From the NCBI RefSeq assembly GCF_017313265.1, contig NZ_JAFLQZ010000024.1:1-64000 (forward strand): DNA of 64,000 bases, given 5' to 3'. This document shows positions 40,073 through 58,794 of this stretch, one piece after another. The stretch is from Hymenobacter telluris. Its GTDB lineage: Bacteria > Bacteroidota > Bacteroidia > Cytophagales > Hymenobacteraceae. Both the position numbers and the translations under genes were made by a program. How positions within the stretch are numbered: position 1 is the first letter of the stretch; each line of letters starts with the position of its first letter. Below the pieces are notes generated by a model that did not search any database, had not been told where the DNA came from, and saw only the letters and a list, made by a program, of their open reading frames with translations.

Positions 40073-40077
40073 GTCTG

Positions 40078-41469
40078 TTAGCTTCTGGCGACAACGTATT
40101 CAATGACTTGCTCTAGAGTCTGTTGCTTATAATTTAAAGCGTATTGATGTACAATATCTTTTGCTATTCTAGGAGACTGGGAGGCCTGAACCACTATACT
40201 CTGCTCTTCTCTAGCCAGTAAATGTCCAATTGTATTCATTCTGCCCAGTAGTTGTTCTATTTCTTGGTCATTCCAATGGGTTAATTCAATAAAAGAGAAC
40301 TGCTCATTGAACTTGGCGATGTTGTAATGGTAAATTGCTGGTTGTTGAATAGTTGAGATGATAAATTTCAGAACTTTAGAGCTCGCTCGGCAGTTTCGGT
40401 ACTCGGCGCAGACGGCGGTCATACTGTTTACAAACTCTTCAAACACAGCTGAATCCTTTATATGTACTTCGTCAATGCAAATGATAAAGTTGTCGGTAGG
40501 AAATAAGTGTGCTAGCAGGTGTGCTAATTGTTTAATGTCACTAGTGCTTTTATAAGTGAAAGTGCGCAACTGAGTAGGATATTTCTCCGTAATATCTTCC
40601 GCTATCATTTGTAGGATAGCCGTTGCATTACGTGGGTTTGGTAAAGCAGTCAAATAGCAGTAAATATGCTGGATTGTCTGTTGTTGCAAGTTACGGTTAG
40701 CTAGGCACGTTTTACCCGTACCAGAGGCTCCATGCAACCAGATGTTCTTTGGTGAAAGTAGGCAACGTAGAAAAACTTCGTCCACCTCACGGGCTACATA
40801 AAAGGGCTCGTAGTCTGTAGTGTATTCAGGCGTGAATAATTGTCGAAACCTCTCCTTATTAAACGTGGGGGTAATAGTGGTAATAGAAGGCCCATCCACA
40901 ACTATACCGAGGGCAACCAATTCTTCCACTACTTGGCCTAAAAGCATGACACCTACATCCTCTCCTTGCTGATAGCGCAGAACCCCACACACCTTTGCAT
41001 CTACAACCAGCGGACTACCCGATAACCCCTCAAGATTATACTCAGGACTGACGCCATTCACTTCAAGTGTCAGTGGCCAAGGGGCTAGCGCATTGTACTG
41101 GAGTACCTGGCCTCTGTAAACGCGTCCTGATAGTAGGTGAAGGGAAGGGAATCCAAATGTTTCCCAAACTGCCTGCTGTGGAGGCTTTGCAGAGCTTAAA
41201 GGTAAAGGGGTTGAGTCAGCAAATGGCTGGGGCAAACGCAGTATAGCTAGGTCAAGCGCTGCTGAACCTAAAAGCTCTACGGTAGCCGATGTTGTATATT
41301 CACCAGTAGGTAGCAGAAATGTAACAGTCAAATCCGTCACATCATGAACAACGTGGTTAGCCGTTAGCAGCATGTCTGGGGCAATAAGAAAGCCCGTACC
41401 ATGATTTCCGCCAGCAACAATCCGAGCTACGGTGGTTTGAAGTTGCGTAAAAGGAGGGATAGACGACAT
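40078..41469 (-). CDS. Trypsin-like serine protease fused to AAA ATPase
   Basis: A 463-aa protein. The N-terminal trypsin-fold domain carries the triad H39 (LLTANHVVH), D73 (ALDLAIL) and S150 (GLSGSPL). A P-loop ATPase from about 205 has Walker A LHGASGTGKT (residues 247-256), Walker B NFIICIDEVH near 328, and a C-terminal helical lid. There is no signal peptide, so a cytoplasmic protease is expected. Protease-ATPase fusions next to MBL hydrolases occur in antiphage loci (composition similar to AVAST type 1 as I remember it). The ATPase would gate proteolysis. It is divergent from the MBL gene at 41781, and 311 bp separate the starts. Confidence 0.8.
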   Translation of the reverse strand: MSSIPPFTQLQTTVARIVAGGNHGTGFLIAPDMLLTANHVVHDVTDLTVTFLLPTGEYTTSATVELLGSAALDLAILRLPQPFADSTPLPLSSAKPPQQAVWETFGFPSLHLLSGRVYRGQVLQYNALAPWPLTLEVNGVSPEYNLEGLSGSPLVVDAKVCGVLRYQQGEDVGVMLLGQVVEELVALGIVVDGPSITTITPTFNKERFRQLFTPEYTTDYEPFYVAREVDEVFLRCLLSPKNIWLHGASGTGKTCLANRNLQQQTIQHIYCYLTALPNPRNATAILQMIAEDITEKYPTQLRTFTYKSTSDIKQLAHLLAHLFPTDNFIICIDEVHIKDSAVFEEFVNSMTAVCAEYRNCRASSKVLKFIISTIQQPAIYHYNIAKFNEQFSFIELTHWNDQEIEQLLGRMNTIGHLLAREEQSIVVQASQSPRIAKDIVHQYALNYKQQTLEQVIEYVVARS

Positions 41470-41780
41470 TTACTACGAAAGTAATAAGCACCGTCTAGTC
41501 GGCCTATTCTCCTCTTGTATGTCTTAATTAAAAGCCGAACCTTACTATTCTAGGCACAGATGAATGGCGTAAGGAAGTGATGTACATAATCGTCATTATT
41601 TTAAAAACAAATAAGTTGCTCCAATTACTGGCCAAGCTATCACTGAAACAGTGCCTATCAAATGATTGAGGTTTAAGATAAAGTTTGAATAATTCGGGTT
41701 CAGCGTATTGCAATCAGTAACTAGTGAGAATGCTTGTATCTCTCAAACATAAATATCGTTAGGACTACCTGTCCAATATT
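41470..41780. promoter_or_regulatory. Divergent intergenic region of the protease/MBL locus
   Basis: 311 bp between the trypsin-AAA gene (minus) and the MBL gene (plus). AT-rich; it should contain both promoters. No clear operator or hairpin seen. Confidence 0.4.
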
Positions 41781-43001
41781 ATGACGCAACCTTTAATTAT
41801 TACTCTATTGCCAGCGGAGGATGGCGACTGCCTACTATTAAGTTTAGGTACTGAAGCTCACATATTGATAGATGCCGGCCGCAGCTCTACTTACACCGGG
41901 TACCTGCGACCACTGTTGCTGACCCAGGCTACGAATAGGCAGCCGCTAAACTGCTGCATCATCACCCACATTGATGCCGACCATATCACAGGAGCGGTGA
42001 ATGGGTTGTTTGCGGAAAACGGTGATGCCAATAGCCCACGCCTAATTCCTATCCAGCAGGTATGGCACAACAGTTATCGTCACCTGTTCTCCACGCTGGA
42101 ATCAATGGTTGACACTCTGTCGGTCGCCGACCAAACTGTATTACAGCAAATCATCGCCCGCGGAAAAATAACACTGGCCAGCGGCCCGGCTCTTGAAGCG
42201 CACCCCATCAGCGCCCGACAAGGGACAATGCTCGGGACATTATTATTGCGGCATGGCTACGCTTGGAATACCGACGCCGGGCAGGAAGCTATAAAGGTGC
42301 CATTGGTAGCTGAAGTAGCCCCAGGAATAGTGCTTAAGGTGCTTTCGCCTAGTTTGACTGGCCTGCAAAACCTGGAGAGGCGTTGGCGAAGGACTCTCAG
42401 GGCAATGGGCTTCTCCAGCCAGTTGCACAGCGGCGCACCCTTCGACGACGCCTATGAATGGTGGCTACTTACAGAGAAATCGGATCTATCTGCTTTACCC
42501 CGGCTTATTGGTGCCCCTTCCTCGCTGACGGCTCATTTGAATACTCAATTTCGAGAAGATACTTCGTCTGCCAATGGCAGTTCCATTGCTTTGGTACTGG
42601 AAGCCGATGGACGGCGGGTACTGCTGCTTGGCGACTCGCATCCCTCGGTGGTCATGCACGAATTGGAATGTCATTATGCCAACGAGCCGCGCCCATGGTG
42701 GTTTGATTGCATAAAGCTCTCTCACCATGGTAGCTTTGCTAACAACAGTCCAGACCTGTTACAAGCCACCGATTCAGACTGTTACTTATTCTCTACCAAC
42801 GGTCGGCATGGGCACCCCGACGCAGCTACCATCGCCTGGGTTGTAACCCGGCCTATATCCCGTACTGGTCAAATACGCCGCCTCGGCTGCAACTACGAAA
42901 CGCCCACCATGCGCCAATTTGCCCGTGCTGACTGGCAGACCCAATATCATTACCAGATAGAGGTCGCGCCAACCGGCCAACCTCTGATAGTTTCATTATA
43001 A
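41781..43001 (+). CDS. MBL-fold metallohydrolase (ComEC/Rec2-type), island copy 1
   Basis: A 406-aa cytoplasmic protein with strand D31 (ILIDAGR), the metal motif H63-I-D-A-D-H68, a third-strand Asp (LLLGDSHPS, near 279) and KLSHHGSFAN near 313. That is the ComEC/Rec2-like MBL arrangement. Usual activities are hydrolysis of phosphodiester or ester bonds. HxDxDH instead of HxHxDH lacks one usual His ligand. Its position opposite the trypsin-AAA gene suggests it is the third component of that locus. Confidence 0.8.
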   Translation: MTQPLIITLLPAEDGDCLLLSLGTEAHILIDAGRSSTYTGYLRPLLLTQATNRQPLNCCIITHIDADHITGAVNGLFAENGDANSPRLIPIQQVWHNSYRHLFSTLESMVDTLSVADQTVLQQIIARGKITLASGPALEAHPISARQGTMLGTLLLRHGYAWNTDAGQEAIKVPLVAEVAPGIVLKVLSPSLTGLQNLERRWRRTLRAMGFSSQLHSGAPFDDAYEWWLLTEKSDLSALPRLIGAPSSLTAHLNTQFREDTSSANGSSIALVLEADGRRVLLLGDSHPSVVMHELECHYANEPRPWWFDCIKLSHHGSFANNSPDLLQATDSDCYLFSTNGRHGHPDAATIAWVVTRPISRTGQIRRLGCNYETPTMRQFARADWQTQYHYQIEVAPTGQPLIVSL

Positions 43002-43599: not shown

Positions 43600-44616
43600 T
43601 CAAGACGGTAGATTCATAGGAACATACGCGGCTGGAGTATGCTTTCTGCGCTTATCAACGCTCTCATCTACAACCTCATAGCTGTTATTGGCGACCCCAA
43701 TAGATCTTAACTGTCGACCCAGTACGCGATAAAACCACGTCATTGAAGCACGCATTTCATCGCCAAACCAAGGTTTGTAGAAACGCAGGAACTCCTCGTC
43801 AACACCCAACCCTAAGGCAACTGCTTTTTCCTTCATCCAGTGCAGCGAGCAGTTAGCTAAACCGTCGTGCTCGTAGCCACCCCCGACGTTGGTATGCACA
43901 CCTGCAAACCAGCGCTGCTCTAACACCTGATCGGAACTAAGATTTTCCCAGAGAGTAGGCTGAAACGTGCGGCGCTGTTCATCGATAGCTAAGGCATGAT
44001 ACGCGTGACGGATAATTGGGCTGAGACGGGTATCATGAAATTCATAGCGGCGGCGATTTAACAGCGTAAACACATTTAAGGGAAGCCCCAACGCTCCTAC
44101 CGTGTCCCACACGCCCACAAATTCGATGGCAATGGTATGAGAATAGTGGGCTTCTCGGAAGGTCTTCACTTGTTGCTGCCAAGCAGTTTGGTTGTTTTTA
44201 GCAGGGGGCCGCTGGCGGTACAACGCGTATGCTTCCGGCACAAAGAAATCATGTGTTTTCGGCAGCAGACCTAAGTGCTGGATAAATCCGGCTAGGCTTC
44301 GGACGCTGTAAGCTCCGCGGCTAAAGCCAAAAAAGAATACTGAATCACCTGGTGCATAATTGTAAAGCAAAAAGCGGTAGGCCTCTCTGATGTTGCGGTC
44401 TAGGCCTGCTCCAATTCCTCCGCCTAGCCAACGATCTAGGCCTGGGTTGTTACCCACCCCTTCATCGTAATACGTAACTTGCACGGTGCCATCTGAAGCC
44501 ACGGGTTGGATGGCTCTTACCATCTTCATCACGTTAGTTGGCTTGCGTTTGCGCCGGTCTACATTCTCGGCCTTATTCCACGTGCCGTCGCATAGCACAA
44601 TTAGTCGTTTGCTCAT
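43600..44616 (-). CDS. DUF2235 alpha/beta hydrolase
   Basis: A 338-aa protein from ATG 44616 (MSKRLIVLCDGTWNKAENVD, the DUF2235 N-terminal signature); an upstream in-frame ATG at 44643 is possible. The nucleophile elbow is GFSRGAYSVRSLAGFIQHLG near residue 100, and VGVWDTVGALG and HTNVGGGY supply the other family blocks. DUF2235 proteins include type VI secretion phospholipases of the Tle1 class. Here it has no secretion partner and lies inside the defence-like island, so a membrane-lipid effector role is possible but unproven. Confidence 0.85.
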   Translation of the reverse strand: MSKRLIVLCDGTWNKAENVDRRKRKPTNVMKMVRAIQPVASDGTVQVTYYDEGVGNNPGLDRWLGGGIGAGLDRNIREAYRFLLYNYAPGDSVFFFGFSRGAYSVRSLAGFIQHLGLLPKTHDFFVPEAYALYRQRPPAKNNQTAWQQQVKTFREAHYSHTIAIEFVGVWDTVGALGLPLNVFTLLNRRRYEFHDTRLSPIIRHAYHALAIDEQRRTFQPTLWENLSSDQVLEQRWFAGVHTNVGGGYEHDGLANCSLHWMKEKAVALGLGVDEEFLRFYKPWFGDEMRASMTWFYRVLGRQLRSIGVANNSYEVVDESVDKRRKHTPAAYVPMNLPS

Positions 44617-44644
44617 AGAAAAGCAACTGCCGTTTAACGGCATG

Positions 44645-45140: not shown

Positions 45141-46661
45141 TCAAGTCATATATACCGTGTACTGTTTAGCCAGAATACGATTAGCATGCTTTACAGTTTG
45201 GTAGCGTGCCTCACCCAAAGAGTCTAAGTCAAACGTGGTAGTTGATGTACAAGCTAAGTCGGACTCATTCATGAGAATGCATCGGCCCTGTGAGCGCTCA
45301 GTTAGTTCCTGCAATAATCGCTTATTCGGCATTGTTGTTCGCCAACGCGACGAGATACGCGTTCTATCCAGCGTTACCATCACTGCGAGGTCAGGACTGT
45401 TCATTAGACGTAGTCCTTTATCGAGTGGTGTGCCATTGAAGCTCAGGTGGTGCGAGACCTTATAAAATACTGTACGGTTGAGTAAGTCCTCTACAAAATG
45501 GGTTCCATTAGGACCCAGCCCTTTCCACTTCTCAACGGCGTGCCAGCCAGCCCAGTTGGCATATTCAGCGTCACCAGGCAGAAGCAGTACCGGGCCACCT
45601 TTGCCCAACTCAACGGCCAAGGCCAAACTCGTGTTGTTGATATGTGAATCCAGACGAATGGCTAACGTTCCCGCCGTGTACAACCATTCATTCTCAATAT
45701 TGCGCCATGCTTGGTCAGGTCCTAAGTACTGGTCAAACAGCTCTTGGGCCTGCTCTTGGTGAGGAGGCACGGGCATTGTAAAACCGGTAGCTCCTACTAC
45801 ATAAGAAGAAGCGAACGGCAAGTCGGCCTCCGTCGGCTCCTGCCCGAGCGTAGCTAAACTGTTCATGGCCAGTACACCCTCACCCATCACCTCGTGCCGT
45901 CGGTAGGTGTCTTGGCCTTCCTTGCCTTCCGCATAAATGAAACGCCGGTCCAGCGAAGGGCCAAGTGCGTGAAAGCACACGCCAGGCAGTGTTGATAATG
46001 CCAGCGATGAGCCGGGTTTCAGGTAACGGATAGGTACTTGTTTGCGAACGAGCAGTTCTTTCACGGCTCGCATGCCTGCCAGCGATTTCTTAACTTTAGG
46101 TGACTCATCTAAATTAATACCACCCAGCGTATCCATACCATCTAAAAAGGCATCAAGGGCCACTAGGGCTTGCTTGTTAGCTTTCAAGTTTACCTGTTCG
46201 GCTCGGATCTGCGCCCGGTTAGTATGGAGCTTATCCAGCGCATTACGCAAGCCTAAGCGAGCCTTCTGACGTTTACTCAATAAGTCTAGCGCACGCTGAT
46301 CCGGGTCGTTGGGATCTTCCGTCCATGCAAACCAAGCCTCTCCGATTTCTAACTGCTCAAATTCAGCCTCACATTTAGCAAACCCATTTATGTGGTCTTG
46401 GTGCTCATGCGTAATTACGAGCAGGTCAAGTTTGCCCTCCACATAGCTTATTAAGTTCTGCACATAAGGCAAAAACTCAGTACGGTCGCCTACGCAACTA
46501 CCACAGTCGATGAGCATTGTAAATTGACATCTGTTAGATGCAAAAAACTTAAGCACTAAGCAATCGCCGGTGCCTAGGCAATACATGCGAATCTCCACCC
46601 GCGTAGTATCTACGGCATCTGGTTTAGTAGTCGGTGTTGCGATTGAAGAAGCTGTAGTCAT
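45141..46661 (-). CDS. MBL-fold metallohydrolase, island copy 2
   Basis: A 506-aa protein with D52 (MLIDCGS), the full metal motif T-H85-E-H87-Q-D89-H90, PGDAEYANW (near 357) and KVSHHLSFNG (near 392). A long charged helical insertion (residues ~115-215) separates the metal motif from the later strands. Last gene of a four-gene minus-strand run starting at 52272; it follows the gluzincin gene by 10 bp. Substrate unknown. Confidence 0.82.
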   Translation of the reverse strand: MTTASSIATPTTKPDAVDTTRVEIRMYCLGTGDCLVLKFFASNRCQFTMLIDCGSCVGDRTEFLPYVQNLISYVEGKLDLLVITHEHQDHINGFAKCEAEFEQLEIGEAWFAWTEDPNDPDQRALDLLSKRQKARLGLRNALDKLHTNRAQIRAEQVNLKANKQALVALDAFLDGMDTLGGINLDESPKVKKSLAGMRAVKELLVRKQVPIRYLKPGSSLALSTLPGVCFHALGPSLDRRFIYAEGKEGQDTYRRHEVMGEGVLAMNSLATLGQEPTEADLPFASSYVVGATGFTMPVPPHQEQAQELFDQYLGPDQAWRNIENEWLYTAGTLAIRLDSHINNTSLALAVELGKGGPVLLLPGDAEYANWAGWHAVEKWKGLGPNGTHFVEDLLNRTVFYKVSHHLSFNGTPLDKGLRLMNSPDLAVMVTLDRTRISSRWRTTMPNKRLLQELTERSQGRCILMNESDLACTSTTTFDLDSLGEARYQTVKHANRILAKQYTVYMT

Positions 46662-46671
46662 AATTAGTGAC

Positions 46672-48687
46672 TTAGTGTTGATGTAAAAAGGCGAAAGGCT
46701 CGCTCATCTGCTGTACATGTTCTCCAAAGTACTGGGTATAGGCGTTGTGATGCTGGTGCTGGCCCTTTTGCATATAGAGGTACTGCCGTTCAGCACGCGC
46801 TGCGTCTACCTGTGCTTGTTCTCCTCGCGACTTAGTCCAGATTTCCAAATCGAGCAATGGCTTGCGCACGACATACTTGAGAGTCATGGTATCCAAGTCT
46901 AGAATAAGGGTACAGCCGCCGCGAAATTGCATGCGTTGCGTCTCCTCGTCGCCTCCTTCCTCTTTCTTGTCTTGCAGGTTGAAACAGCCGGCCACCTTAT
47001 CATTTCGTAAACAAACGCCGCTACGCTGCACCAAATAGAATACGACATGGTTGATTTGAAGTCCATCAGGGCCCACCCGGCTAACGAGCCGCAGATTCAG
47101 CAATTGGAAAGAGGGACCCGGGCCATAAGAAACCGTGTGCACACCCACCCGTTTGGGGTTGTCAATGAATGCTAGCCCAGTCAGGCTGGCAAATTCGGTA
47201 GAGGCAGCAAAGTGGTAGCCTATGTACTGGTGCAAGCCAGGTGTATCTCCATCAACTCCCGTATCTAACTTTTGAATAAAGTGCCGGGTTATTGCATTTA
47301 TAATAGCCCGGTCGCTCTGGTATTTTATACTTACAGCATACTCCCGCAGCATGCTGTTGAGTTCGGCGAATACTTCCTGAGAAGCTACGGAGCGGGTATA
47401 TTCTTCGCTGGTACCAATAACGGATAATCGCAGGCTCTCGACGCTCAGCGTTTTAATGCCTCGGGGATAAATCCCTCGCCGCCGAAATGCGTCAATGAAA
47501 GCCAGCCGGTAATGATATCGATCATCGCGCACCGAATCTACGTCAGCCGTGATCAACGCTCGCAGGAAATCGCCAAATGTAATATCAAGCGGCGGGCAGT
47601 AGTCTAATGCTCTAATGCACATCGTGAGTACGTGATTTGCTGCCTTAGCCGCTTCGGCAGCCAAGCGATTTACCAAGTCCGGGTGTAATTCCCCCTGGGC
47701 CAAAATGCCACTGCCTCCGGAGGCGATACGCAAGAGATCCGCAATCCGCACCTTGTATATAGATAGGAACGCCTCAAACACAGCGGCTACTAAAATACTG
47801 CCACGTGCATGCGGTTCGGTCTGTTGCCGATATTCATCGCCATTTGGTTCTTTAGGCTGCCACTGTCCTGTGTTAGGATCACGACGGCCAATAGCGTCGC
47901 GTAAGCCACCATAGCCACCTATAGCCGTTCCAAACTGCTGTGCTAGTTCACCCAGTAGGTTTTGGGAGGTCAGATCGCCCCGGGTGCGCGCAATTTGATG
48001 ACGTAGCACTTCCGGAAATGTGAATCGTTGAAATAAGGCTACTATATCAGCAAATGCCTCGTGGAAGGCGAGTACATCAGGATTGGTTGGCTCGCTGTAA
48101 TGCTCATAGATACCATCAAGAATAGCATGCGTCACCTCATGAGCGATAATATCGTGGCTCAGGCAAGTAAACACCAACGAGTCAGGCATGAGTTGGGTAT
48201 CGTCAGCAGGGGTAGAGGAGAAATAACCAAACAGTACGGCCTTCTTCAACGGGCTGTAGTACGCATTAGCGTCGCGCATGGCATGCGGATAAAGACGCAA
48301 TCGAGGGACATACTCTTCGTAATTCGGGCCATCGAGCGTGCGCCGCTGGGCCCACTGAATTTTGCGGCCTAATGCTTGTTCGAAATTTTTGATCGTGGTC
48401 ATCGTCACCGCGTACACCATCTGCTGATGAAACTGCGGGTTGCTCTCGCTCGGCTCCAAACCGTTTTGCGCCAGCAGGTAGCGGTCGTTTAAGTCAACTG
48501 GCAAGTAGAATCGGCGCACGGTCGGATCGTAGTCAATTACTTCTACATACTCTCCAACGGGCCCCGAAGCCACAGGCTCCCATTCGATCTTATAAGTGAG
48601 GTGGTTAATGGCTGCGGTGTCGAGACGCAGTGATAAAGAAGGATCAAAGCTATAAGCTCGCAGTTGGCGGAAATAGGGTGGATTCAC
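46672..48687 (-). CDS. Gluzincin metalloprotease (M4-like), 671 aa
   Basis: Starts at GTG 48687. Zinc motif H183-E-V-T-H187, and the third ligand E210 in FHEAFADIVALF, which matches the M4/thermolysin HExxH...EAxxD spacing. There is no signal peptide, unlike thermolysin-type secreted proteases, so it acts in the cytoplasm or is released by lysis. The C-terminal ~270 residues have no domain I recognise. It lies between the E2-E1-JAB gene (104 bp upstream) and MBL copy 2. A role in processing or effector proteolysis within the island is inference. Confidence 0.75.
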   Translation of the reverse strand: MNPPYFRQLRAYSFDPSLSLRLDTAAINHLTYKIEWEPVASGPVGEYVEVIDYDPTVRRFYLPVDLNDRYLLAQNGLEPSESNPQFHQQMVYAVTMTTIKNFEQALGRKIQWAQRRTLDGPNYEEYVPRLRLYPHAMRDANAYYSPLKKAVLFGYFSSTPADDTQLMPDSLVFTCLSHDIIAHEVTHAILDGIYEHYSEPTNPDVLAFHEAFADIVALFQRFTFPEVLRHQIARTRGDLTSQNLLGELAQQFGTAIGGYGGLRDAIGRRDPNTGQWQPKEPNGDEYRQQTEPHARGSILVAAVFEAFLSIYKVRIADLLRIASGGSGILAQGELHPDLVNRLAAEAAKAANHVLTMCIRALDYCPPLDITFGDFLRALITADVDSVRDDRYHYRLAFIDAFRRRGIYPRGIKTLSVESLRLSVIGTSEEYTRSVASQEVFAELNSMLREYAVSIKYQSDRAIINAITRHFIQKLDTGVDGDTPGLHQYIGYHFAASTEFASLTGLAFIDNPKRVGVHTVSYGPGPSFQLLNLRLVSRVGPDGLQINHVVFYLVQRSGVCLRNDKVAGCFNLQDKKEEGGDEETQRMQFRGGCTLILDLDTMTLKYVVRKPLLDLEIWTKSRGEQAQVDAARAERQYLYMQKGQHQHHNAYTQYFGEHVQQMSEPFAFLHQH

Positions 48688-48791: not shown

Positions 48792-51110
48792 CTAGTAGAT
48801 GAATGGTAATAACTCCTGGTGTGTAGCAATAAGCAGGAATACTGGAAGCGGATTGGGTAGCTCTTCAAACTCCTGCTTAAAGCGGCGCACAGTTGCATGG
48901 TCTGTTGCACTCATGGCGCTAGGGCCCAGCGGATGGGTATGCCATTCCCCCACGTACCCTAACTGCCCGCCTGACTGCTCAACTGCCCGACCGATTGCCT
49001 CCGGTAAACCTTCTACGCCCCGGAAAAAACATACAGGTGTAGCCCGGCTATCTGGTGGGGCTAACACCGCGTCCACTACATGAATGACCTTGGTTTTATA
49101 GTTAACCTGCCCGATGAAGACGCCGCCCGTTTCATTGGGGTACGCTTTACGTAGGGCCAGCCGTACTGCCTTAGTTGCCTTAGGACACAGGCGTATCTGC
49201 CAACTCGAATCATTCAGTGCCGTGAGTACCTCACGTTTAGGCACTAGTATCCGCTCGGTATTCAGCACCGGATACCCGTCGAAACAGGTTACCTTACTAA
49301 GAAAAACCTGTCCCTGCGCCGTCCGTTCAGCTCGTTTAGTCTCAGCTTTCAGAACTTGGGCCACGTAGGCGGCATGGGTGCTGATAACTTCATCGGCAAG
49401 AATGGTTGTTTCAGAATTACACCCGACTCCCACTGTGACGAGTGTACTTTCGCCGGTAGATGTGGCCTGCTCGCGTTGTAGCCACGCCGATACGGCCGGT
49501 CTGCGTTTGCCTTGTGCATATAAGGCCACCTGCAAATCGTCTAACCGTGGATTACGCTCGGTGCCTTCCAAGCTTAAAATACCCAGATTGCCTTGGTCGG
49601 AAATAACTGCACGGTTGATGGCGGCATGTGACAAATGGGGCTGGACTACCAGCGACGTAAAGAAAGCCTCAGAAGCCGTAAAATCTAAAATGTACTTTAT
49701 TCCATTTAACTGTTCAGCGCTCTTGCCAATCCAGATAGATTCGCCTGTTTGCGGCAGGCCAAAGGCAACAAGTTCGGGTTCGTGTCGGTACAGGTTCTTG
49801 ATAGTGCTAGCTAGAGCCAAGGCTTTATTGTTTCCCTCCGCCTCGGCGTGCAGTGCGTAGCGAACCAGATTATGCGGTGACACCTTATCCGAGTCCACTA
49901 AGACAAGATTGCCTGCTCCGTTGCGGGCTAGGTGCATGATTATTTTGGAACCCAACGCACCGCAACCCACAGCAAATGTGATGACCGGCAAGAGCGGATA
50001 GCTGCCTGATATGCTGCGAGCTTTGCGCAAAGTTAGCGGCTCGTTATGCGCCTGAAATCGAACCGCAGGGTTAGTAGTGATCTGCCCTTCCTGGATAGCA
50101 GATGAAGGTAAGTCCACAAAAAAATTAACAAACTCAAGGTCCGCCGAGAAACCAATAACAGGCTTAGGTCGACGCAACCCGCAGACAATAGGCAACTCGG
50201 GAAAAAAGTTGTAATGCTCATCGCCCTGCGTAATGAATTGCGTTAGTGCGCCCACATTCAGGCCATACGAAGTGCAGAAGGTCTGAAATTCCTCCCAGCT
50301 TTGCGGCAGATTAACGGAGTAGTGTGCGTAGCTATCGGATGTGCTACTCCACAGTAGATACCCTATGTGGTATTTTTTGACCTTAAAGGTTTTATCAGCC
50401 AGTAACTCCTTGGTTGCCTTAATATAATCTAAAAGCGTAGCATGGTATGTTTCTGGAGTTATTAGCTTCACAAACCGAAAGGCCGGCTTTTCCTCTTCCT
50501 TGGCCATATTCTCAAACAGAACCATGGCAAAGTTCTGGTTAGGCTTCCAGGAGTCTTTAGCTTCAATGATGGCAGCAAATTGATCATACGGGTAAATGAT
50601 AGTACCCGTATATCCCTCTAATCGTAGAGGGTCATACTGACCACTGTCCAGCGTTAAATTTCCTACGGCCGCATCGCGGAGCCAGTTACCAGTACGTGTA
50701 ACAACATCGCGCAGTCGCTTATTGGCATACCATTCTTTAATGCTGCCACGCACTAGACAAAAAGCGGGTGGCAGCCCAAGTTGGGCAATGTAGAGGTGAG
50801 CCAGCCGATCTTTGGGAAAATCCAACCGGTCCGTGTATACTGTTGGTGGTAGAGTCGGATATTGGGCTAGCGAGAAAGCTATAAAAACTGGTTCTATAGC
50901 TCGAATATCGAGGTCTTCATAGTTGCCCAGCGGCGGCAACTCAACCTCTACATCTAGTGGTAGCACTACCTGAGTGTCGGACCACACCAGCAGAGGCAAT
51001 GGCGCCCCGCCCAAAAATTGTTGAAGGTCAGTTAGCGAATCCTGCAGTGCAGGATTCGCTAACTGACCTTCGTAAGAACTTAATGAGGAGCTAAACTTAG
51101 CGAGCGCCAT
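48792..51110 (-). CDS. E2-E1-JAB triple fusion (ubiquitin-like conjugation/deconjugation enzyme)
   Basis: A 772-aa protein from ATG 51110 (MALAKFSSSLSSYEGQL), overlapping the stop of the upstream MBL gene by 14 bp. Residues ~60-170 are E2/UBC-like: YPTLPPTVY, then LAHLYIA, then the candidate catalytic Cys118 in FCLVRGSIKEWY. Residues ~370-600 are a ThiF/E1 domain with the nucleotide loop VGCGALGSK and LVDSDKVSPHNLVRY, and a candidate Cys in GVGCNSETTILADEV. Residues ~645-772 are a JAB/MPN protease with an intact JAMM motif, EWHTHPLGPSAMSATD, and an upstream Glu. Bacterial E1, E2 and JAB activities normally attach and remove a Ub-like modifier. No separate Ub-like gene is seen here. Confidence 0.85.
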   Translation of the reverse strand: MALAKFSSSLSSYEGQLANPALQDSLTDLQQFLGGAPLPLLVWSDTQVVLPLDVEVELPPLGNYEDLDIRAIEPVFIAFSLAQYPTLPPTVYTDRLDFPKDRLAHLYIAQLGLPPAFCLVRGSIKEWYANKRLRDVVTRTGNWLRDAAVGNLTLDSGQYDPLRLEGYTGTIIYPYDQFAAIIEAKDSWKPNQNFAMVLFENMAKEEEKPAFRFVKLITPETYHATLLDYIKATKELLADKTFKVKKYHIGYLLWSSTSDSYAHYSVNLPQSWEEFQTFCTSYGLNVGALTQFITQGDEHYNFFPELPIVCGLRRPKPVIGFSADLEFVNFFVDLPSSAIQEGQITTNPAVRFQAHNEPLTLRKARSISGSYPLLPVITFAVGCGALGSKIIMHLARNGAGNLVLVDSDKVSPHNLVRYALHAEAEGNNKALALASTIKNLYRHEPELVAFGLPQTGESIWIGKSAEQLNGIKYILDFTASEAFFTSLVVQPHLSHAAINRAVISDQGNLGILSLEGTERNPRLDDLQVALYAQGKRRPAVSAWLQREQATSTGESTLVTVGVGCNSETTILADEVISTHAAYVAQVLKAETKRAERTAQGQVFLSKVTCFDGYPVLNTERILVPKREVLTALNDSSWQIRLCPKATKAVRLALRKAYPNETGGVFIGQVNYKTKVIHVVDAVLAPPDSRATPVCFFRGVEGLPEAIGRAVEQSGGQLGYVGEWHTHPLGPSAMSATDHATVRRFKQEFEELPNPLPVFLLIATHQELLPFIY

Positions 51111-52272
51111 AACCTGAAACCTTGTTGATGGCTCCCAAACCGGCCGCTCCAGCTCCGATGGCACTGCCTTCCGTTATTTTGGGCGGCACTGGCCCCTGTG
51201 CTGTCACCTCAAAGACAATGGGCTGGGGGGTCTTCTTTTTTACAATGTGCGTTTCAGTGTTCAGAAATTTGACGCTGCCTACCTTATTTACATACTGCTT
51301 CTTGGCTTGGTGGTGAGGTGGATTGTCGTCATTATCAAGGATAGCTTTACTAGAAGCAATAACCTTTGCATTCAGACGCTTGTAATCTAGAATGGCCAGA
51401 GAGCTATCTTTTGGAGTTGGATTGTCCTTTTGTGGGCAGTCGTTGAAGTACGTCCAAGAACAGTGATGAGGAGCTAAAAATAGGTCCCAATTCAGTGCTT
51501 GCTGGTTGATATGATTGTTGCTCTGCTCCGTTTTGGTTTGGATGATACACCAAGAGTAATGGTCCGCATCTCCGCCAAACATTGCTAGGCACGAGAAGTT
51601 CGTGTCAGCGGGTGACTGCTTGAAGCGAGCCTGAAAGACGATGCTGGCGGAGTTCTTAGTCTTTTCCTCATCATACAGTTGCTCCTTAAAGGGAGCATGC
51701 AGGAAAACCGAAAAAAGGGTTTGCTCTTTTTGGTTGAAGCTTGTGATGATGTTTCCTGGGATCTTACGCAGATGATTCAGCTTCTGGAAGCTATCATTGC
51801 CGTCATACCCGATAATCAAGATGCGGTTGCCTGGCTTATTGCTATTAGGGTCGCCTTTGAGGTGAAGAGCCACGCGTCGCATTACTTCCTGCTGCACATT
51901 GTCCTCTTCGTCGTTACTATGAATTTCCTGGATCATGGGCGAAAACCATATTTCATCCATGATAATCTCCTGGGCTTCTAGATTGGTCTTATCGTACTTT
52001 AGCGGATCGCCTTGGTAGAAGTTTTTCGTATAGCCGAGGCAATGATCTTTATCGCCGTGAGTCAGCACGAACACGTCCACGAACGGCTTACTCTCACGAC
52101 GCTGAATAGATTGCAGCAGATCGGCTTTTACGTCAAACTGGGTTTCGTCGCTGTCACCCTTTGAGGACTCGCGGATGTTACAATCCACCATGATGGTGGT
52201 GTTGTCGGTTAAGGTGAGCAACGAGCAGTCTCCGTTGCAAACCGGATAATACTTAATGGTGGCAGTAGCCAT
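51097..52272 (-). CDS. MBL-fold metallohydrolase with Gly-rich C-terminal tail, island copy 3
   Basis: A 391-aa protein from ATG 52272. Metal motif T-H72-G-D-K-D-H77 (one usual His replaced by Gly), D30 (IMVDCN), MFGGDADHYSW near 240, and LAPHHCSWTYF near 273. After the MBL domain comes a linker (VPPKITEGSA) and a small-residue tail, IGAGAAGLGAINKVSGYGAR, ending the protein. The tail resembles neither a membrane helix nor a known domain, and a flexible exposed terminus is expected. The overlap with the E2-E1-JAB start implies the two are made together, so the tail is a candidate conjugation or JAB-cleavage site (inference). Confidence 0.8.
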   Translation of the reverse strand: MATATIKYYPVCNGDCSLLTLTDNTTIMVDCNIRESSKGDSDETQFDVKADLLQSIQRRESKPFVDVFVLTHGDKDHCLGYTKNFYQGDPLKYDKTNLEAQEIIMDEIWFSPMIQEIHSNDEEDNVQQEVMRRVALHLKGDPNSNKPGNRILIIGYDGNDSFQKLNHLRKIPGNIITSFNQKEQTLFSVFLHAPFKEQLYDEEKTKNSASIVFQARFKQSPADTNFSCLAMFGGDADHYSWCIIQTKTEQSNNHINQQALNWDLFLAPHHCSWTYFNDCPQKDNPTPKDSSLAILDYKRLNAKVIASSKAILDNDDNPPHHQAKKQYVNKVGSVKFLNTETHIVKKKTPQPIVFEVTAQGPVPPKITEGSAIGAGAAGLGAINKVSGYGAR

Positions 52273-52855: not shown

Positions 52856-52884
52856 TTGACTAAAAGCATCTTAGCTATATCTTG
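52856..52884 (+). promoter_or_regulatory. Putative promoter of the XRE-ImmA gene
   Basis: TTG (52856-52858), 19 bases, then TATCTTG (52878-52884), close to the Bacteroidota TTG-N19-TAnnTTTG consensus. It would place the transcript start about 10-15 bases before ATG 52903. Confidence 0.4.
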
Positions 52885-52902
52885 TTTAATGAGGTATTCA
52901 GC

Positions 52903-54015
52903 ATGACAGCCTTTGCAGAAAATTTACGGGCAGCCCGCACGATGAAAGGGTGGAGCCTACAAGAACTGGCTGACCAAATTGGGAGTGTTAGCAGACAGGC
53001 ACTCCATAAGTACGAACAAGGTTTAATGGAACCGGAAGGTGAGATACTGTCACTGCTCACCAAAGTCCTTGGGGTAGAACCAGGCTATTTTTTCCGGTCT
53101 AAGCGTGTGAGTCTTGGTCAAGTCGACTTTCGAAAGAAGGTTAAGCTCAGTGCGAAGGAAGCCGCCAGTATTAAAGAACACATCCGTGACTACGTCGAGC
53201 GTTACCTAGAAGTCGAAGAATTGCTTCGTATCTCACACCATTTTCAGGCTCCTTTTGGCTGGTGTTCGCAAACTAACTCACCTAAGCGCTGGCCTGTCAC
53301 TACTGCGGATGATGTGGAGCAGGCAGTAGTACACATCCAAGAGGCATGGGAGCTAGGAATGAACCCCATAACAAGCATTATAGATACGCTAGAAGATAAA
53401 GGTGTATGCGTATTTAGCGTACCCACGTCGTCTGCTTTCAATGGCCTAGCCACTTTTCCGAATGGTTTGCCAGTAGTAGTATTGAATGAACATGATACCC
53501 CAGAACGTCGCCGGTTTACGGCCTTGCACGAACTCGGACATCTTGTCTTATCCTTTGAGGGGCTGGAACCTAAGCTAATAGAGACATTTTGCCACCGTTT
53601 CGCTAGTGCTTTATTATTACCTAGAAAGGTAACTACGTGGAAATTCGGCGCAACTCGCACCCGAATATCGCATTATGAGTTGAAAGCAGTTAAAGAGCAG
53701 TATGGGATCTCTGTGCAGGCTATAATGCGCCGCTTATCGGACTTGGAGATCATTACAGCTGGTCACTATAAATATTTCTGCATTAGAATGGCGAAGAATA
53801 AGTTAGAGACGGGTTATGGAAGTTATGCTGGTGAGGCTGCTCGACCACAACGTTTCCGGCAACTGGTACATCGCCTCATCGCAGAAGACGTTGTGTCAGT
53901 TAGTAAAGCAGCAGCGCTGGTTGGCACGAGTTTGAGTGCTTTTCGCAATGAATATTTATCAATTGAAGAATGCGATACGACCAATTTGCCATCCAAGACG
54001 CCGAGTTATTCATAG
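52903..54015 (+). CDS. XRE HTH - ImmA/IrrE metallopeptidase fusion
   Basis: A 370-aa protein from ATG 52903 (MTAFAENLRAARTMKGWSLQ); a TTG 21 bp upstream is less likely. Residues 5-60 form an XRE helix-turn-helix (LQELADQIGSVSRQALHKYE). ImmA-type zinc peptidase H209-E-L-G-H213, followed by the helix ETFCHRFASALLLP. The C-terminus has a second HTH-like region (about 320-350). Such fusions regulate toxin partners or mobile elements by cleaving a repressor or themselves acting as antitoxin. It overlaps the next gene by 46 bp, typical of a two-gene TA-like module. Confidence 0.85.
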   Translation: MTAFAENLRAARTMKGWSLQELADQIGSVSRQALHKYEQGLMEPEGEILSLLTKVLGVEPGYFFRSKRVSLGQVDFRKKVKLSAKEAASIKEHIRDYVERYLEVEELLRISHHFQAPFGWCSQTNSPKRWPVTTADDVEQAVVHIQEAWELGMNPITSIIDTLEDKGVCVFSVPTSSAFNGLATFPNGLPVVVLNEHDTPERRRFTALHELGHLVLSFEGLEPKLIETFCHRFASALLLPRKVTTWKFGATRTRISHYELKAVKEQYGISVQAIMRRLSDLEIITAGHYKYFCIRMAKNKLETGYGSYAGEAARPQRFRQLVHRLIAEDVVSVSKAAALVGTSLSAFRNEYLSIEECDTTNLPSKTPSYS

Positions 54016-54494
54016 AATTGGAGGCGGCTGATTTACTCGACCCAGTGTTCCAATTGCCATTTACTTATTCTACTACCTGCCTGCTATGGGAAGGGTTAGA
54101 TGGGCCGTCTCAGTGTGCAATAGAGCCATATCGTGTTGCCGGTCGCTTAGAAATAGTTCAACTCAGTCATCAAGACCAACTTCGAGCAGCAGTATTAGAG
54201 GCGCAGGCTGATGGTTTAACCCTGGCGGAATGCTCAGTGTACCAGTTAGCTCATGCTAATAACTGGCCCATGTTAGCACTCTGCAATAGTTTATGTCGCC
54301 GCTGTTACGTACCACCAGTGCAACTTTATAATATGTCTTGGTTAGTCAAGCAACTTGTTGCAAGACGCCATATGACACGCCCCGAAGCTATTTCAGCGTC
54401 TAGGCGGCTTAGCCAACTCAATCCGCGCTTGCGAGTACAATATAATCAACTGGAGGTGGAGCTAAAAAGTCCCTTGATAGCTCCAGTAGCATAA
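53970..54494 (+). CDS. PIN-like protein partnered with XRE-ImmA
   Basis: A 174-aa protein from ATG 53970, overlapping the XRE-ImmA gene by 46 bp in another frame. Acidic positions resemble the PIN nuclease order: an early Asp/Glu strand (IQDAELFIELE), Glu and Asp in the central part (ADGLTLAECSVYQLAHANNW), then a variable ALCNSLCRRC strand where PIN proteins have D-x-x-L. NMSWLVKQLV resembles the final helix of DUF3368-like proteins. Likely the toxin or effector half of the pair. The catalytic set is incomplete by eye, so PIN membership is tentative. Confidence 0.55.
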   Translation: MRYDQFAIQDAELFIELEAADLLDPVFQLPFTYSTTCLLWEGLDGPSQCAIEPYRVAGRLEIVQLSHQDQLRAAVLEAQADGLTLAECSVYQLAHANNWPMLALCNSLCRRCYVPPVQLYNMSWLVKQLVARRHMTRPEAISASRRLSQLNPRLRVQYNQLEVELKSPLIAPVA

Positions 54495-57955: not shown

Positions 57956-58015
57956 ATGGCAAGTAAGCGCTACATAAAGGCTGAATTGGCGCCTGGCCAA
58001 GTGCTACAAAAATGA
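57956..58015 (+). CDS. 19-aa leader peptide coupled to rep
   Basis: ATG 57956 opens a 20-codon frame (MASKRYIKAELAPGQVLQK) whose TGA overlaps the ATG of the Rep gene (ATGA at 58012-58015). It may couple translation to rep, as leader peptides do in some plasmids. It is short, so chance is possible. Confidence 0.35.
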   Translation: MASKRYIKAELAPGQVLQK

Positions 58016-58794
58016 CGAATCCACCTAACGCAACTGCCATGATCCCGGACCCTACCGCCGACGAGACGAGCCTTCTCGCACTCCAAAACAAGGCTTTGCT
58101 CAACGACGGCTATTCATTTTTGCCGCTGCACATACGGCTGTTTGTCTTCTTGCTGGCCCAAATCGACTATGACAACTTAGAGCGGAATCAGTTTTTTGTT
58201 CCTACTGCCCTGTTGCTTCCGGGCCAAAGCGAGGACATTGTCCACGGCGATAGCTCTGCCCGAGCCCTTGACCAGATGTGCCGGGACGTCATCGGCATTA
58301 AGTTGCACGTTGAAACGTTTAGGGATGTACGCGGCCAGCGGCGGCGCAAGGTCAAGCCTGTAGTCACCTACATGAATCTGATAAGTGTTGCCGCCTTCGA
58401 CGGCGGGCTAGGCGGCGTGCTAGTCAAGTTCACGAAGGATATAATGCCGTATCTGTTGCAGCTGCACCAAGGGGGTAACTACCCCTTAGCTGATCTGGAT
58501 GAGCTGCTCCGATTAGGTCCTACCGACGCCCAGCCTCTCTTTGAATTGCTGCAGGAGTTTGGCCACTTCAGCCACCCCAAGATTGACCTAGACCAACTTG
58601 CAAGGCTACTCAAGCGTGCGCAGCCCAAGCAGCATACGAAGCTTCAGCAAACGCTGGAGGAAGTGCAACCGACTGCTCTCCCCTTTGTCTACGAGCAGTA
58701 CCAAGAAAAGCAATTGAGTGAGCGCTTTAGAGTGATGTTCCCTGATAAGACCAGCAGAAAGAAGGTACTCTTCTTGGAAGACTACATGTCTTAA
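58012..58794 (+). CDS. Rep_3-like initiator/replication protein, copy 1
   Basis: A 260-aa protein with a winged-helix-type initiator layout: ALLNDGYSFLPLHIRLFVFL (helix-rich N-terminal domain, related to the LSTTESRLFLAML segment of the second Rep), YMNLISVAAFDGGLGGVLVK, then TKDIMPYLLQL and DAQPLFELLQEFGHFSHPKI. It matches the Rep_3 (RepB/RepE) pattern but the C-terminal domain is short and divergent. No iterons directly upstream, so it may be auxiliary to the second Rep. Confidence 0.65.
   Translation: MTNPPNATAMIPDPTADETSLLALQNKALLNDGYSFLPLHIRLFVFLLAQIDYDNLERNQFFVPTALLLPGQSEDIVHGDSSARALDQMCRDVIGIKLHVETFRDVRGQRRRKVKPVVTYMNLISVAAFDGGLGGVLVKFTKDIMPYLLQLHQGGNYPLADLDELLRLGPTDAQPLFELLQEFGHFSHPKIDLDQLARLLKRAQPKQHTKLQQTLEEVQPTALPFVYEQYQEKQLSERFRVMFPDKTSRKKVLFLEDYMS

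What the first reader, a model, noticed from the sequence alone, without database searches (positions are those of the whole stretch)
48792..52272. E2-E1-JAB fusion translationally coupled to an MBL protein with an exposed Gly-rich C-terminal tail
Seen: one 772-aa chain contains an E2-like Cys118 region, a ThiF/E1 nucleotide site and an intact JAMM motif. Its ATG lies inside the last codons of an MBL-fold gene whose C-terminus is a small-residue tail ending NKVSGYGAR. Known: bacterial E1/E2/JAB sets conjugate and trim Ub-like proteins in antiphage systems (Bil/Bub and CBASS type II), and E2-E1-JAB fusions have been catalogued by comparative genomics. Inference: with no Ub-like gene nearby, the MBL protein's tail may itself be the activated or JAB-processed terminus, i.e. 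an enzyme serving as its own modifier or substrate.
Basis: partly seen in the sequence, partly recalled or inferred. Interest (0 to 1): 0.82.

Follow-up and report, generated by a model that had tools for sequence, protein, structure and literature searches.

The report
Bacterial enzyme with a ubiquitin-like tail
A bacterial defence locus pairs a nuclease-like enzyme with a ubiquitin-style attaching and detaching machine, and comparison with relatives indicates that the enzyme's own floppy tail is what gets attached; the locus type is already known, but this use of the enzyme still has to be shown at the bench.

Summary
A 391-aa ComEC-like MBL protein (52272-51097, minus) overlaps by 14 nt a 772-aa E2-E1-JAB protein (51110-48792) with intact catalytic residues. 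The locus type is not new: both proteins pass NCBIfam's curated cut-offs for the '6A-MBL' anti-phage system, and Iyer 2006 described the operon as type 6a. In 64 of 64 non-redundant MBLs with an E1-E2 partner (window included) the tail has a Gly within its last seven residues: last in 28, followed by 1-6 drifting residues in 36 (window ...SGYG|AR). The Gly stays in the 23 of 51 loci where no start codon overlaps it. The tail also follows the ligase, not the enzyme: an MBL paired with a CBASS-type Cap2+Cap3 has a 19-residue tail 11-13/19 identical to those of three of four CD-NTases with related Cap2s, and three MBLs paired with an E2 alone have Cys-containing tails. No ubiquitin-like gene was found among the neighbouring ORFs scanned. 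Most likely the MBL plays the part CD-NTase plays in type II CBASS. No bench evidence was seen.

The parts
51097..52272 (-). MBL-fold gene (391 aa), ComEC-like, NCBIfam 6A-MBL_enzyme
   Evidence: NF058524 373.5 bits, cut-off 220; Foldseek best hit ComEC MBL domain 9ic4, E 2.2e-11; H72, D76, H77, D235, H269, H270 in all and D74 in 89% of 64 MBLs
51100..51171 (-). C-terminal tail, residues 368-391 of the MBL protein, predicted disordered
   Evidence: pLDDT below 50 over 368-391; variable except for Gly389
51100..51111 (-). Tyr388-Gly389 codons plus the Ala-Arg extension: proposed acceptor Gly and trimmed residues; the Tyr-Gly codons hold the ATG of the next gene
   Evidence: Gly within the last 7 residues in 64 of 64 non-redundant MBLs; start-codon overlap
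48792..51110 (-). E2-E1-JAB fusion (772 aa), NCBIfam 6A-MBL_cap2_3
   Evidence: NF058523 563.5 bits, cut-off 320; Foldseek's first seven hits are all Cap2, 7to3 E 2.1e-24
50598..50918 (-). E2-like domain (Pfam Prok-E2_A match) with Cys118
   Evidence: Pfam; Cys in 51 of 51
49788..49973 (-). E1 nucleotide-binding part (Pfam ThiF match); K429, D476 and Cys564 belong to the same region
   Evidence: Pfam; conservation
48882..49172 (-). JAB/JAMM peptidase domain (E660, H724, H726, S734, D737)
   Evidence: Pfam Prok-JAB; conservation
52882..54015 (+). Divergent HTH + ImmA/IrrE-like gene, candidate regulator of the operon
   Evidence: HTH_3 and Peptidase_M78; PADLOC RmrA 156.5, capP 52.2, capH 36.1 bits; that it belongs to the system is inferred

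Best explanation
The locus is a 6A-MBL defence operon in which the ComEC-like MBL protein carries a ubiquitin-style tail. Proposed steps: (1) the fused JAB trims the precursor ...SGYG|AR to expose Gly389; (2) the E1 domain adenylates Gly389 and takes it as a thioester on Cys564; (3) the E2 domain takes it on Cys118 and passes it to a lysine of a target; (4) the JAB can undo this. Attachment would place or prime the MBL protein, as Cap2 does for CD-NTase in type II CBASS. The primed MBL then cuts DNA or, in the many loci with a membrane protein or patatin beside it, acts through that effector. Shown here by sequence and model: intact active sites, a predicted disordered tail, conservation of the Gly, tail type following ligase type. 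Inferred: that covalent conjugation occurs, JAB trimming, the target, nuclease activity, phage defence.
For: Both proteins pass the 6A-MBL cut-offs. Tail Gly within the last seven in 64 of 64, last in 28; 1000 shuffles of the last 30 residues reach at most 55 (mean 43.2), and 282 of 923 other ORFs pass the same test. In an evenly drawn sample of 395 genomes of the phylum 8 pass the MBL cut-off, the window's own included; the 7 others all have the Gly tail and an E1-type gene downstream. 23 of 51 loci have no start codon over the Gly codon and keep the Gly. Catalytic residues of E2, E1 and JAB in 49-51 of 51. Partner changes: the L085 MBL, with a CBASS-type Cap2 (PADLOC 606.6 bits) and a separate JAB (193.4), has a tail 13, 12 and 11 of 19 identical to CD-NTases L183, L181 and L184 and 7 to L185, against at most 3 for 92 other MBL tails, 6 for 974 other C-termini and 9 in 20,000 shuffles; its four nearest MBLs (61-62% identical) end PMPHG, PMPHGSS or PMPHGAS, or APMPHGAS. 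E2-only: L021 ends KQPHCTND while 76.6%-identical L019/L020, which have Cap2_3, end VVKQG. [quoted passage not shown] Closest solved structures are Cap2.
Against: No biochemical evidence was seen. 36 of 64 tails do not end in the Gly and would need a trimming step not shown for this family. The target is unknown. The window locus has no membrane or patatin gene beside it, so its final effect is unclear. The genome encodes two ThiS/MoaD-type proteins elsewhere that an E1 could use. Of seven MBL relatives below the family cut-off whose C-termini I read, two have a Gly in the last seven residues without an E1 seen in the short stretch fetched (L104 ...EYGR near a contig edge, L116 ...MGH); the two PDC-M48 controls also have one. 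Two small ORFs ending in GG or YG lie near the pair in L038 and L053 and were not examined further.
Confidence: 0.78

Rival explanations
1. Cap2_3 conjugates a separate ubiquitin-like protein (host ThiS/MoaD, as Iyer 2006 speculated for such operons, or one encoded elsewhere) and the MBL is only an effector or a target.
For: The genome holds two ThiS/MoaD proteins; Iyer 2006 speculated on an endogenous ThiS/MoaD (PMC1779556 section 16); Bil uses a separate ubiquitin-like protein (PMC11354881, passages); Bub likewise (recalled).
Against: Both ThiS copies lie on other contigs, the same two that carry the genome's other two ThiF matches. No recurrent neighbour gene looked like a ubiquitin-like protein among clusters around 51 loci (first 15 clusters of three or more loci shown, no ubiquitin-like profile search made). 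It does not explain the tail Gly or the tail changes.
Confidence: 0.1
2. The tail is a non-covalent or proteolytic switch: the JAB or E2 domain binds it, or the JAB only cuts it to activate a pro-nuclease, without E1-E2 conjugation.
For: MBL nucleases of Hachiman and AVAST are proenzymes activated by a partner protease (PMC12799240, passages); 36 of 64 tails have residues after the Gly.
Against: E1 ATP-site residues, E1 Cys and E2 Cys are invariant or nearly so; 28 of 64 tails end in the Gly and need no cut; in the three E2-only loci no E1 or JAB was found; the tail of L085 matches tails of the CBASS kind, for which conjugation has been shown in other members.
Confidence: 0.08
3. The Tyr-Gly motif is a by-product of the overlapping start codon of the next gene (T-ATG-G) and means nothing at protein level.
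For: In 28 of 51 loci, as in the window, an in-frame ATG sits inside the Tyr/His/Asn-Gly codons.
Against: In 23 of 51 loci no start codon of the next frame touches the Gly codon and the Gly is there (13 AG, 4 QG, 4 HG, 2 YG; one of the AG loci is L085, whose tail ends PAGFA). The overlap fixes only the first base of the Gly codon, leaving Ala, Val, Asp and Glu open. Where the ligase differs, the motif changes.
Confidence: 0.03

Closest known systems
6A-MBL anti-phage system (NCBIfam NF058523/NF058524; operon type 6a of Iyer 2006)
   Same: Both proteins over the curated cut-offs, same two-gene pairing
   Different: Nothing that excludes membership; the tail as modifier is not in the Iyer sections read (14 and 16), and no paper naming the system was found in the library
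Type II CBASS (CD-NTase, Cap2, Cap3)
   Same: E2-E1 architecture, JAB, enzyme with a Gly/Ala tail; closest solved structures are Cap2; the L085 MBL has a tail like those of CD-NTases with related Cap2s
   Different: MBL protein in place of CD-NTase; Cap2 and Cap3 fused; 36 of 64 tails carry residues after the Gly
Type II-short CBASS (E2 alone; the description is recalled)
   Same: Three 6A-MBL proteins are followed by an E2-only protein; L030's matches PADLOC CBASS E2 (183 bits), and those of L021 and L032 are 33% and 38% identical to it
   Different: The window has the full E2-E1-JAB
MBL nucleases of AVAST, Lamassu and Hachiman, and ComEC
   Same: ComEC-like MBL fold; weak PADLOC matches
   Different: Conjugation enzymes as partner instead of a trypsin-like protease; Gly tail
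Bil and Bub systems
   Same: Bacterial E1/E2 and JAB-type or other deconjugating enzymes (Bub recalled)
   Different: They have dedicated ubiquitin-like proteins (Bil: passages; Bub: recalled); none was found here

Membership tests
6A-MBL system (NCBIfam) | MBL protein over the curated cut-off | tested here: met
   373.5 bits, cut-off 220
6A-MBL system (NCBIfam) | Cap2_3 protein over the curated cut-off | tested here: met
   563.5 bits, cut-off 320
6A-MBL system (NCBIfam) | The two genes adjacent on one strand | tested here: met
   14-nt overlap, same strand
6A-MBL system (NCBIfam) | Protection from phage | not testable with these tools
   The model's name implies it; no paper found
Type II CBASS | CD-NTase gene in the operon | tested here: not met
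   No cyclase match among 13 ORFs scanned around the locus (10, 3 more)
Type II CBASS | E1-E2 with catalytic cysteines and JAB with JAMM motif | tested here: met
   Foldseek to Cap2
Type II CBASS | Enzyme C-terminus is Gly or Ala and is conjugated | tested here: inconclusive
   Conserved Gly followed by two residues in the window; conjugation itself not testable
System with a dedicated ubiquitin-like protein (Bil, Bub) | Ubiquitin-like gene in the operon | tested here: not met
   None among the neighbouring ORFs scanned with Pfam; a very divergent one could be missed
ComEC-like MBL proteins | MBL fold and metal-ligand residues | tested here: met
ComEC-like MBL proteins | DNase activity | not testable with these tools
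   Inferred from the family only

The most novel reading that the evidence does not exclude
C-terminal tails are a portable, ligase-specific code: E1-E2-JAB, E1-E2 or E2-only modules can be plugged onto unrelated immune enzymes (CD-NTase, Pycsar cyclase, ComEC-like MBL protein) because each module reads its own tail type. The 6A-MBL protein is then a second non-beta-grasp protein used as a ubiquitin-like modifier, made in many species as a precursor (SGYG|AR) trimmed by its own fused JAB, with E2-only variants that use a Cys-containing tail and no E1.
Probability: 0.65. Interest if true: 0.8.

Novelty: new member of a known kind. Interest (0 to 1): 0.62.

Why it matters
[quoted passage not shown] The 6A-MBL family is a concrete second candidate. 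It is common on enterobacterial plasmids (252 plasmid records match the window MBL, 126 of them Klebsiella; an operon like that of L006 is in 31 of 5426 E. coli genomes), so it can be tested in a laboratory E. coli strain. The tail changes point to the residues that the ligases read and suggest how such modules recruit new enzymes.

Tried and rejected
Considered and dropped: overlap of the start codon as the cause of the motif; a ubiquitin-like gene beside the pair (two small ORFs ending in GG or YG, in L038 and L053, were seen and not pursued); the last 20 residues as the most conserved part (not so); tail Gly as an effect of composition (shuffles). PDC-M48 MBLs, which share a membrane partner but have no conjugation gene in the 3.5 kb fetched, gave only two control loci; both proteins are about 90-100 residues shorter and each has a Gly in its last seven, so the control is weak. 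A search for Avs1a-type controls gave one match with a stop inside besides the window's own. The E2-only scan of viral contigs found nothing. The Multi_ubiq search of the genome is uninformative because no control rang. Joint modelling of MBL with Cap2_3 was not possible with the tools.

Rows dropped before the counts. One search kept the best 80 of 269 relatives; the others were not seen. One search left out L007 (the window), L050, L052, L055, L074 and L078 (incomplete MBL); one search found no MBL in L008. L021, L030, L032, L062 and L079 had no Cap2_3 match by blastp: the first three are the E2-only loci, where a profile search found none either; L062 has one by profile (cut by the contig end); L079's contig ends after the MBL. 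L062 and L079 end APRAGR and KPHFYG and are not counted. The 93 MBLs are 70, 15 from plasmid records (L001-L006, L160, L162-L169), 7 and the window. L161 is a broken copy and was not counted. L085 is in the 64; L180, L182 and the other loci are not: of these L175-L179 have a Cap match and Gly tails (L179's MBL frame starts late), L186 ends APRAG. One partial Cap protein (L033) was left out. One search's rule missed one patatin-like start (L053), listed there as 'other'. In one search I used the nine matches with E below 1e-30 and left out the weaker ones, most of which match only the short C-terminal end of the model. The four CD-NTase loci were chosen from 139 plasmid records that match the L085 Cap2. 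The tree puts L163, which ends EHG and has a fused partner, inside the branch of the split-Cap2 MBLs, so the number of changes there is unsure; L180 and L182 have long branches that meet.
Full report
What is there. The minus strand carries an MBL-fold gene (52272-51097, 391 aa) followed by an E2-E1-JAB gene (ATG 51110, end 48792, 772 aa); the second start codon lies inside the Tyr388-Gly389 codons of the first gene. Pfam recognises Prok-E2_A, ThiF and Prok-JAB in the large protein. NCBIfam scores both proteins as members of the 'anti-phage 6A-MBL system': 563.5 bits (cut-off 320) and 373.5 bits (cut-off 220). Iyer and others 2006 described the same pairing, 'usually with two genes', as the first of five operon types, Table 1 row 6a (PMC1779556; sections 14 and 16 read). 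So the locus type is known. No paper in the library holds the string '6A-MBL', and none of the papers listed by six further searches (some lists were capped, and I saw titles and starts of abstracts) is about conjugation of the MBL protein. Subscription papers and preprints are mostly not in the library, so a report elsewhere is possible, and the NCBIfam name suggests one. [quoted passage not shown]

The enzymes look active. Over 51 aligned Cap proteins, the window's included, the E2 Cys118 is in 51, K429 in 51, D476 in 49, E1 Cys564 in 50, the JAMM residues E660, H724, H726 and S734 in 50 each and D737 in 51. The exception for Cys564, E660 and H724 is L085, which has a separate Cap2 and JAB. 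The MBL residues H72, D76, H77, D235, H269 and H270 are in all of 64 MBLs and D74 in 89%. The AlphaFold2 models have mean pLDDT 89.7 (MBL) and 90.1 (Cap2_3); the MBL tail 368-391 is below 50. Foldseek's best PDB match for the MBL is the ComEC MBL domain 9ic4 (E 2.2e-11); for Cap2_3 the first seven are all Cap2, among them Cap2 bound to the CdnD02 C-terminus. By sequence no solved 6A-MBL structure was found.

The tail. A scan of genome contigs gave 80 loci (best 80 of 269). With plasmid loci and the over-cut-off matches of an evenly drawn sample of 395 genomes of the phylum I had 93 complete MBLs with an E1-E2 partner, 64 at 85% identity, the window included. All 64 have a Gly within the last seven residues. 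It is the last residue in 28; in 36 the last Gly is followed by 1-6 residues. Shuffling the last 30 residues gives 43.2 on average and 55 at most in 1000 trials; 282 of 923 other ORFs pass the same test. The residue before the anchor Gly (chosen by a rule that prefers Tyr, His, Gln or Phe before it) is Tyr 27, Ala 19, His 10, Gln 5, Phe 2, Asn 1. In an alignment not anchored on the motif, the Gly389 column is 84% Gly while 361-391 averages 0.30 against 0.50 for the body. In close enterobacterial relatives the letters after the Gly differ (VSNQ, VINQ, VSDQ) while AAAPRAG is unchanged. This is the look of a ubiquitin-type precursor: a fixed Gly and a disposable end.

Not a start-codon artefact. 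In 28 of 51 loci an in-frame ATG of the next gene sits in the Tyr/His/Asn-Gly codons; in the other 23 no start codon of that frame touches the Gly codon, and the Gly is still there. Where there is overlap it fixes only the first base of the Gly codon.

The tail follows the ligase. Two kinds of partner change were found, and a weak third comparison. (a) L085, L180 and L182 are over the MBL cut-off (412, 375 and 318 bits). L085 and L180 have a CBASS-type Cap2 (PADLOC 607 and 348 bits; 86 and 72 bits against the 6A Cap2_3 model, cut-off 320) and a separate JAB (193 and 125 bits); L182 is annotated with a separate ThiF and Mov34 gene. Their tails end PAGFA, GGGYA and QPAYA, with Ala last. The last 19 residues of L085 are 13, 12 and 11 of 19 identical to those of the CD-NTases L183, L181 and L184, whose Cap2s are 36-46% identical to its own, and 7 of 19 to L185 (Cap2 32%). 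The best of 92 other MBL tails is 3, of 974 other C-termini 6, and 20,000 shuffles reach 9 (12 if the last three residues are held). The 20 residues before that match in 0-4 positions. The B. cereus cyclase tail KPGGFA is conjugated through its Ala (PMC11153139, passages). The MBLs nearest to L085 (61-62% identical) end in PMPHG with 0 or 2 residues after it. (b) L021, L030 and L032 are followed by an E2-only gene; a profile made from the Cap2_3 proteins found no E1 or JAB in the 17 kb held of each. L030's E2 is a PADLOC CBASS E2 (183 bits), and the other two are 33% and 38% identical to it. The MBL tails end KQPHCTND, KKPWCNTDD and SGNWCKS. L021 is 76.6% identical to L019 and L020, which have Cap2_3 and end VVKQG; well-supported branches force at least two label changes for the E2-only MBLs. 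In nine E2-only loci among 395 genomes (matches below 1e-30) the gene before the E2 is a CD-NTase (six) or a Pycsar cyclase (three; 449, 484 and 514 bits), and eight of nine of their tails hold P-[WY], as two of the three MBL tails hold P-[WH]. (c) MBLs beside the PDC-M48A membrane protein without conjugation genes are shorter and lack such a tail, but only two were found.

Mechanism. In CBASS, Cap2 forms a thioester with the C-terminal Gly of cGAS and joins it to lysines; [quoted passage not shown] the conserved terminal residue is found only where Cap2 and Cap3 are present (PMC10097602, passages). The same reading fits here with the MBL protein in the enzyme's place. JAB trimming of SGYG|AR, conjugation and the target are inferred. 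In 28 of 51 loci a same-strand neighbour has two or more predicted membrane spans (22 of 270 among non-adjacent ORFs), and in 5, or 6 with L053, it looks like a patatin (one patatin checked with Pfam). Effectors of these kinds occur in CBASS (recalled), which suggests that in those loci the MBL acts through a membrane effector. The window has none beside the operon, so there the MBL itself, or the genes downstream, may be the effector.

Setting. The window's contig has a Rep3-type initiator (58012-58794), a tyrosine recombinase and a zeta-toxin-like gene, and the three same-genus genomes in the sample have no match to the family, as expected of a mobile element; that the contig is a plasmid is inferred. 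A divergent HTH-ImmA/IrrE gene lies upstream. In 9 of the 16 annotated plasmid loci a WYL gene or an HTH plus ImmA/IrrE pair lies just upstream in the same manner; such regulators, CapW and CapH+CapP, answer to single-stranded DNA (PMC13373217, passages).

Verdict.

Noticed in passing
L021 7983-9810, L030 8001-9834, L032 8001-9849: 6A-MBL proteins with Cys where the tail Gly would be, followed by an E2-only gene and no E1 or JAB found in the stretch held.
   Followed up: partly
L090, L092, L094: Pycsar cyclases (PADLOC PycC 449, 484, 514 bits) followed by an E2-only gene of the same family, with KPYF-type tails: Pycsar with a conjugation module.
   Followed up: partly
window 37457-43001: An Avs1a-type MBL (41781-43001, +, PADLOC 293 bits) divergent from a trypsin-like protease gene (40078-41469, -, matches the start of Avs1b, 82 bits) and an 871-aa gene that reads like an ATPase; resembles the nuclease-protease pairs of PMC12799240.
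   Followed up: partly
window 45141-48687: A 671-aa HExxH protein without a Pfam match and, 10 nt on, a 506-aa MBL; the pair recurs in L001 (13426-17033) and the first protein matches 104 plasmid records. Possibly a metalloprotease-MBL pair.
   Followed up: partly
51 relatives of the locus: A same-strand gene with predicted membrane spans (28) or a patatin-like gene (5 or 6) sits directly beside the MBL-Cap2_3 pair; L035's is PADLOC PDC-M48A (187 bits).
   Followed up: partly
window 43600-44643, L001 12163-13206, L002 3167-4249: A DUF2235/Tle1-like lipase gene lies within about 8 kb of the operon in all three.
   Followed up: no
window 53970-54494: A 174-aa ORF overlapping the end of the HTH-ImmA/IrrE gene, no Pfam, PADLOC or NCBIfam match.
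   Followed up: no
L104 259-1374: A divergent MBL below the cut-off that ends ...SEYGR beside a gene that reads like a membrane protein, near a contig edge; partner not visible.
   Followed up: no
L001 4330-7904: An IetAS defence pair (PADLOC 452 and 1037 bits) directly upstream of the closest plasmid relative of the locus.
   Followed up: no
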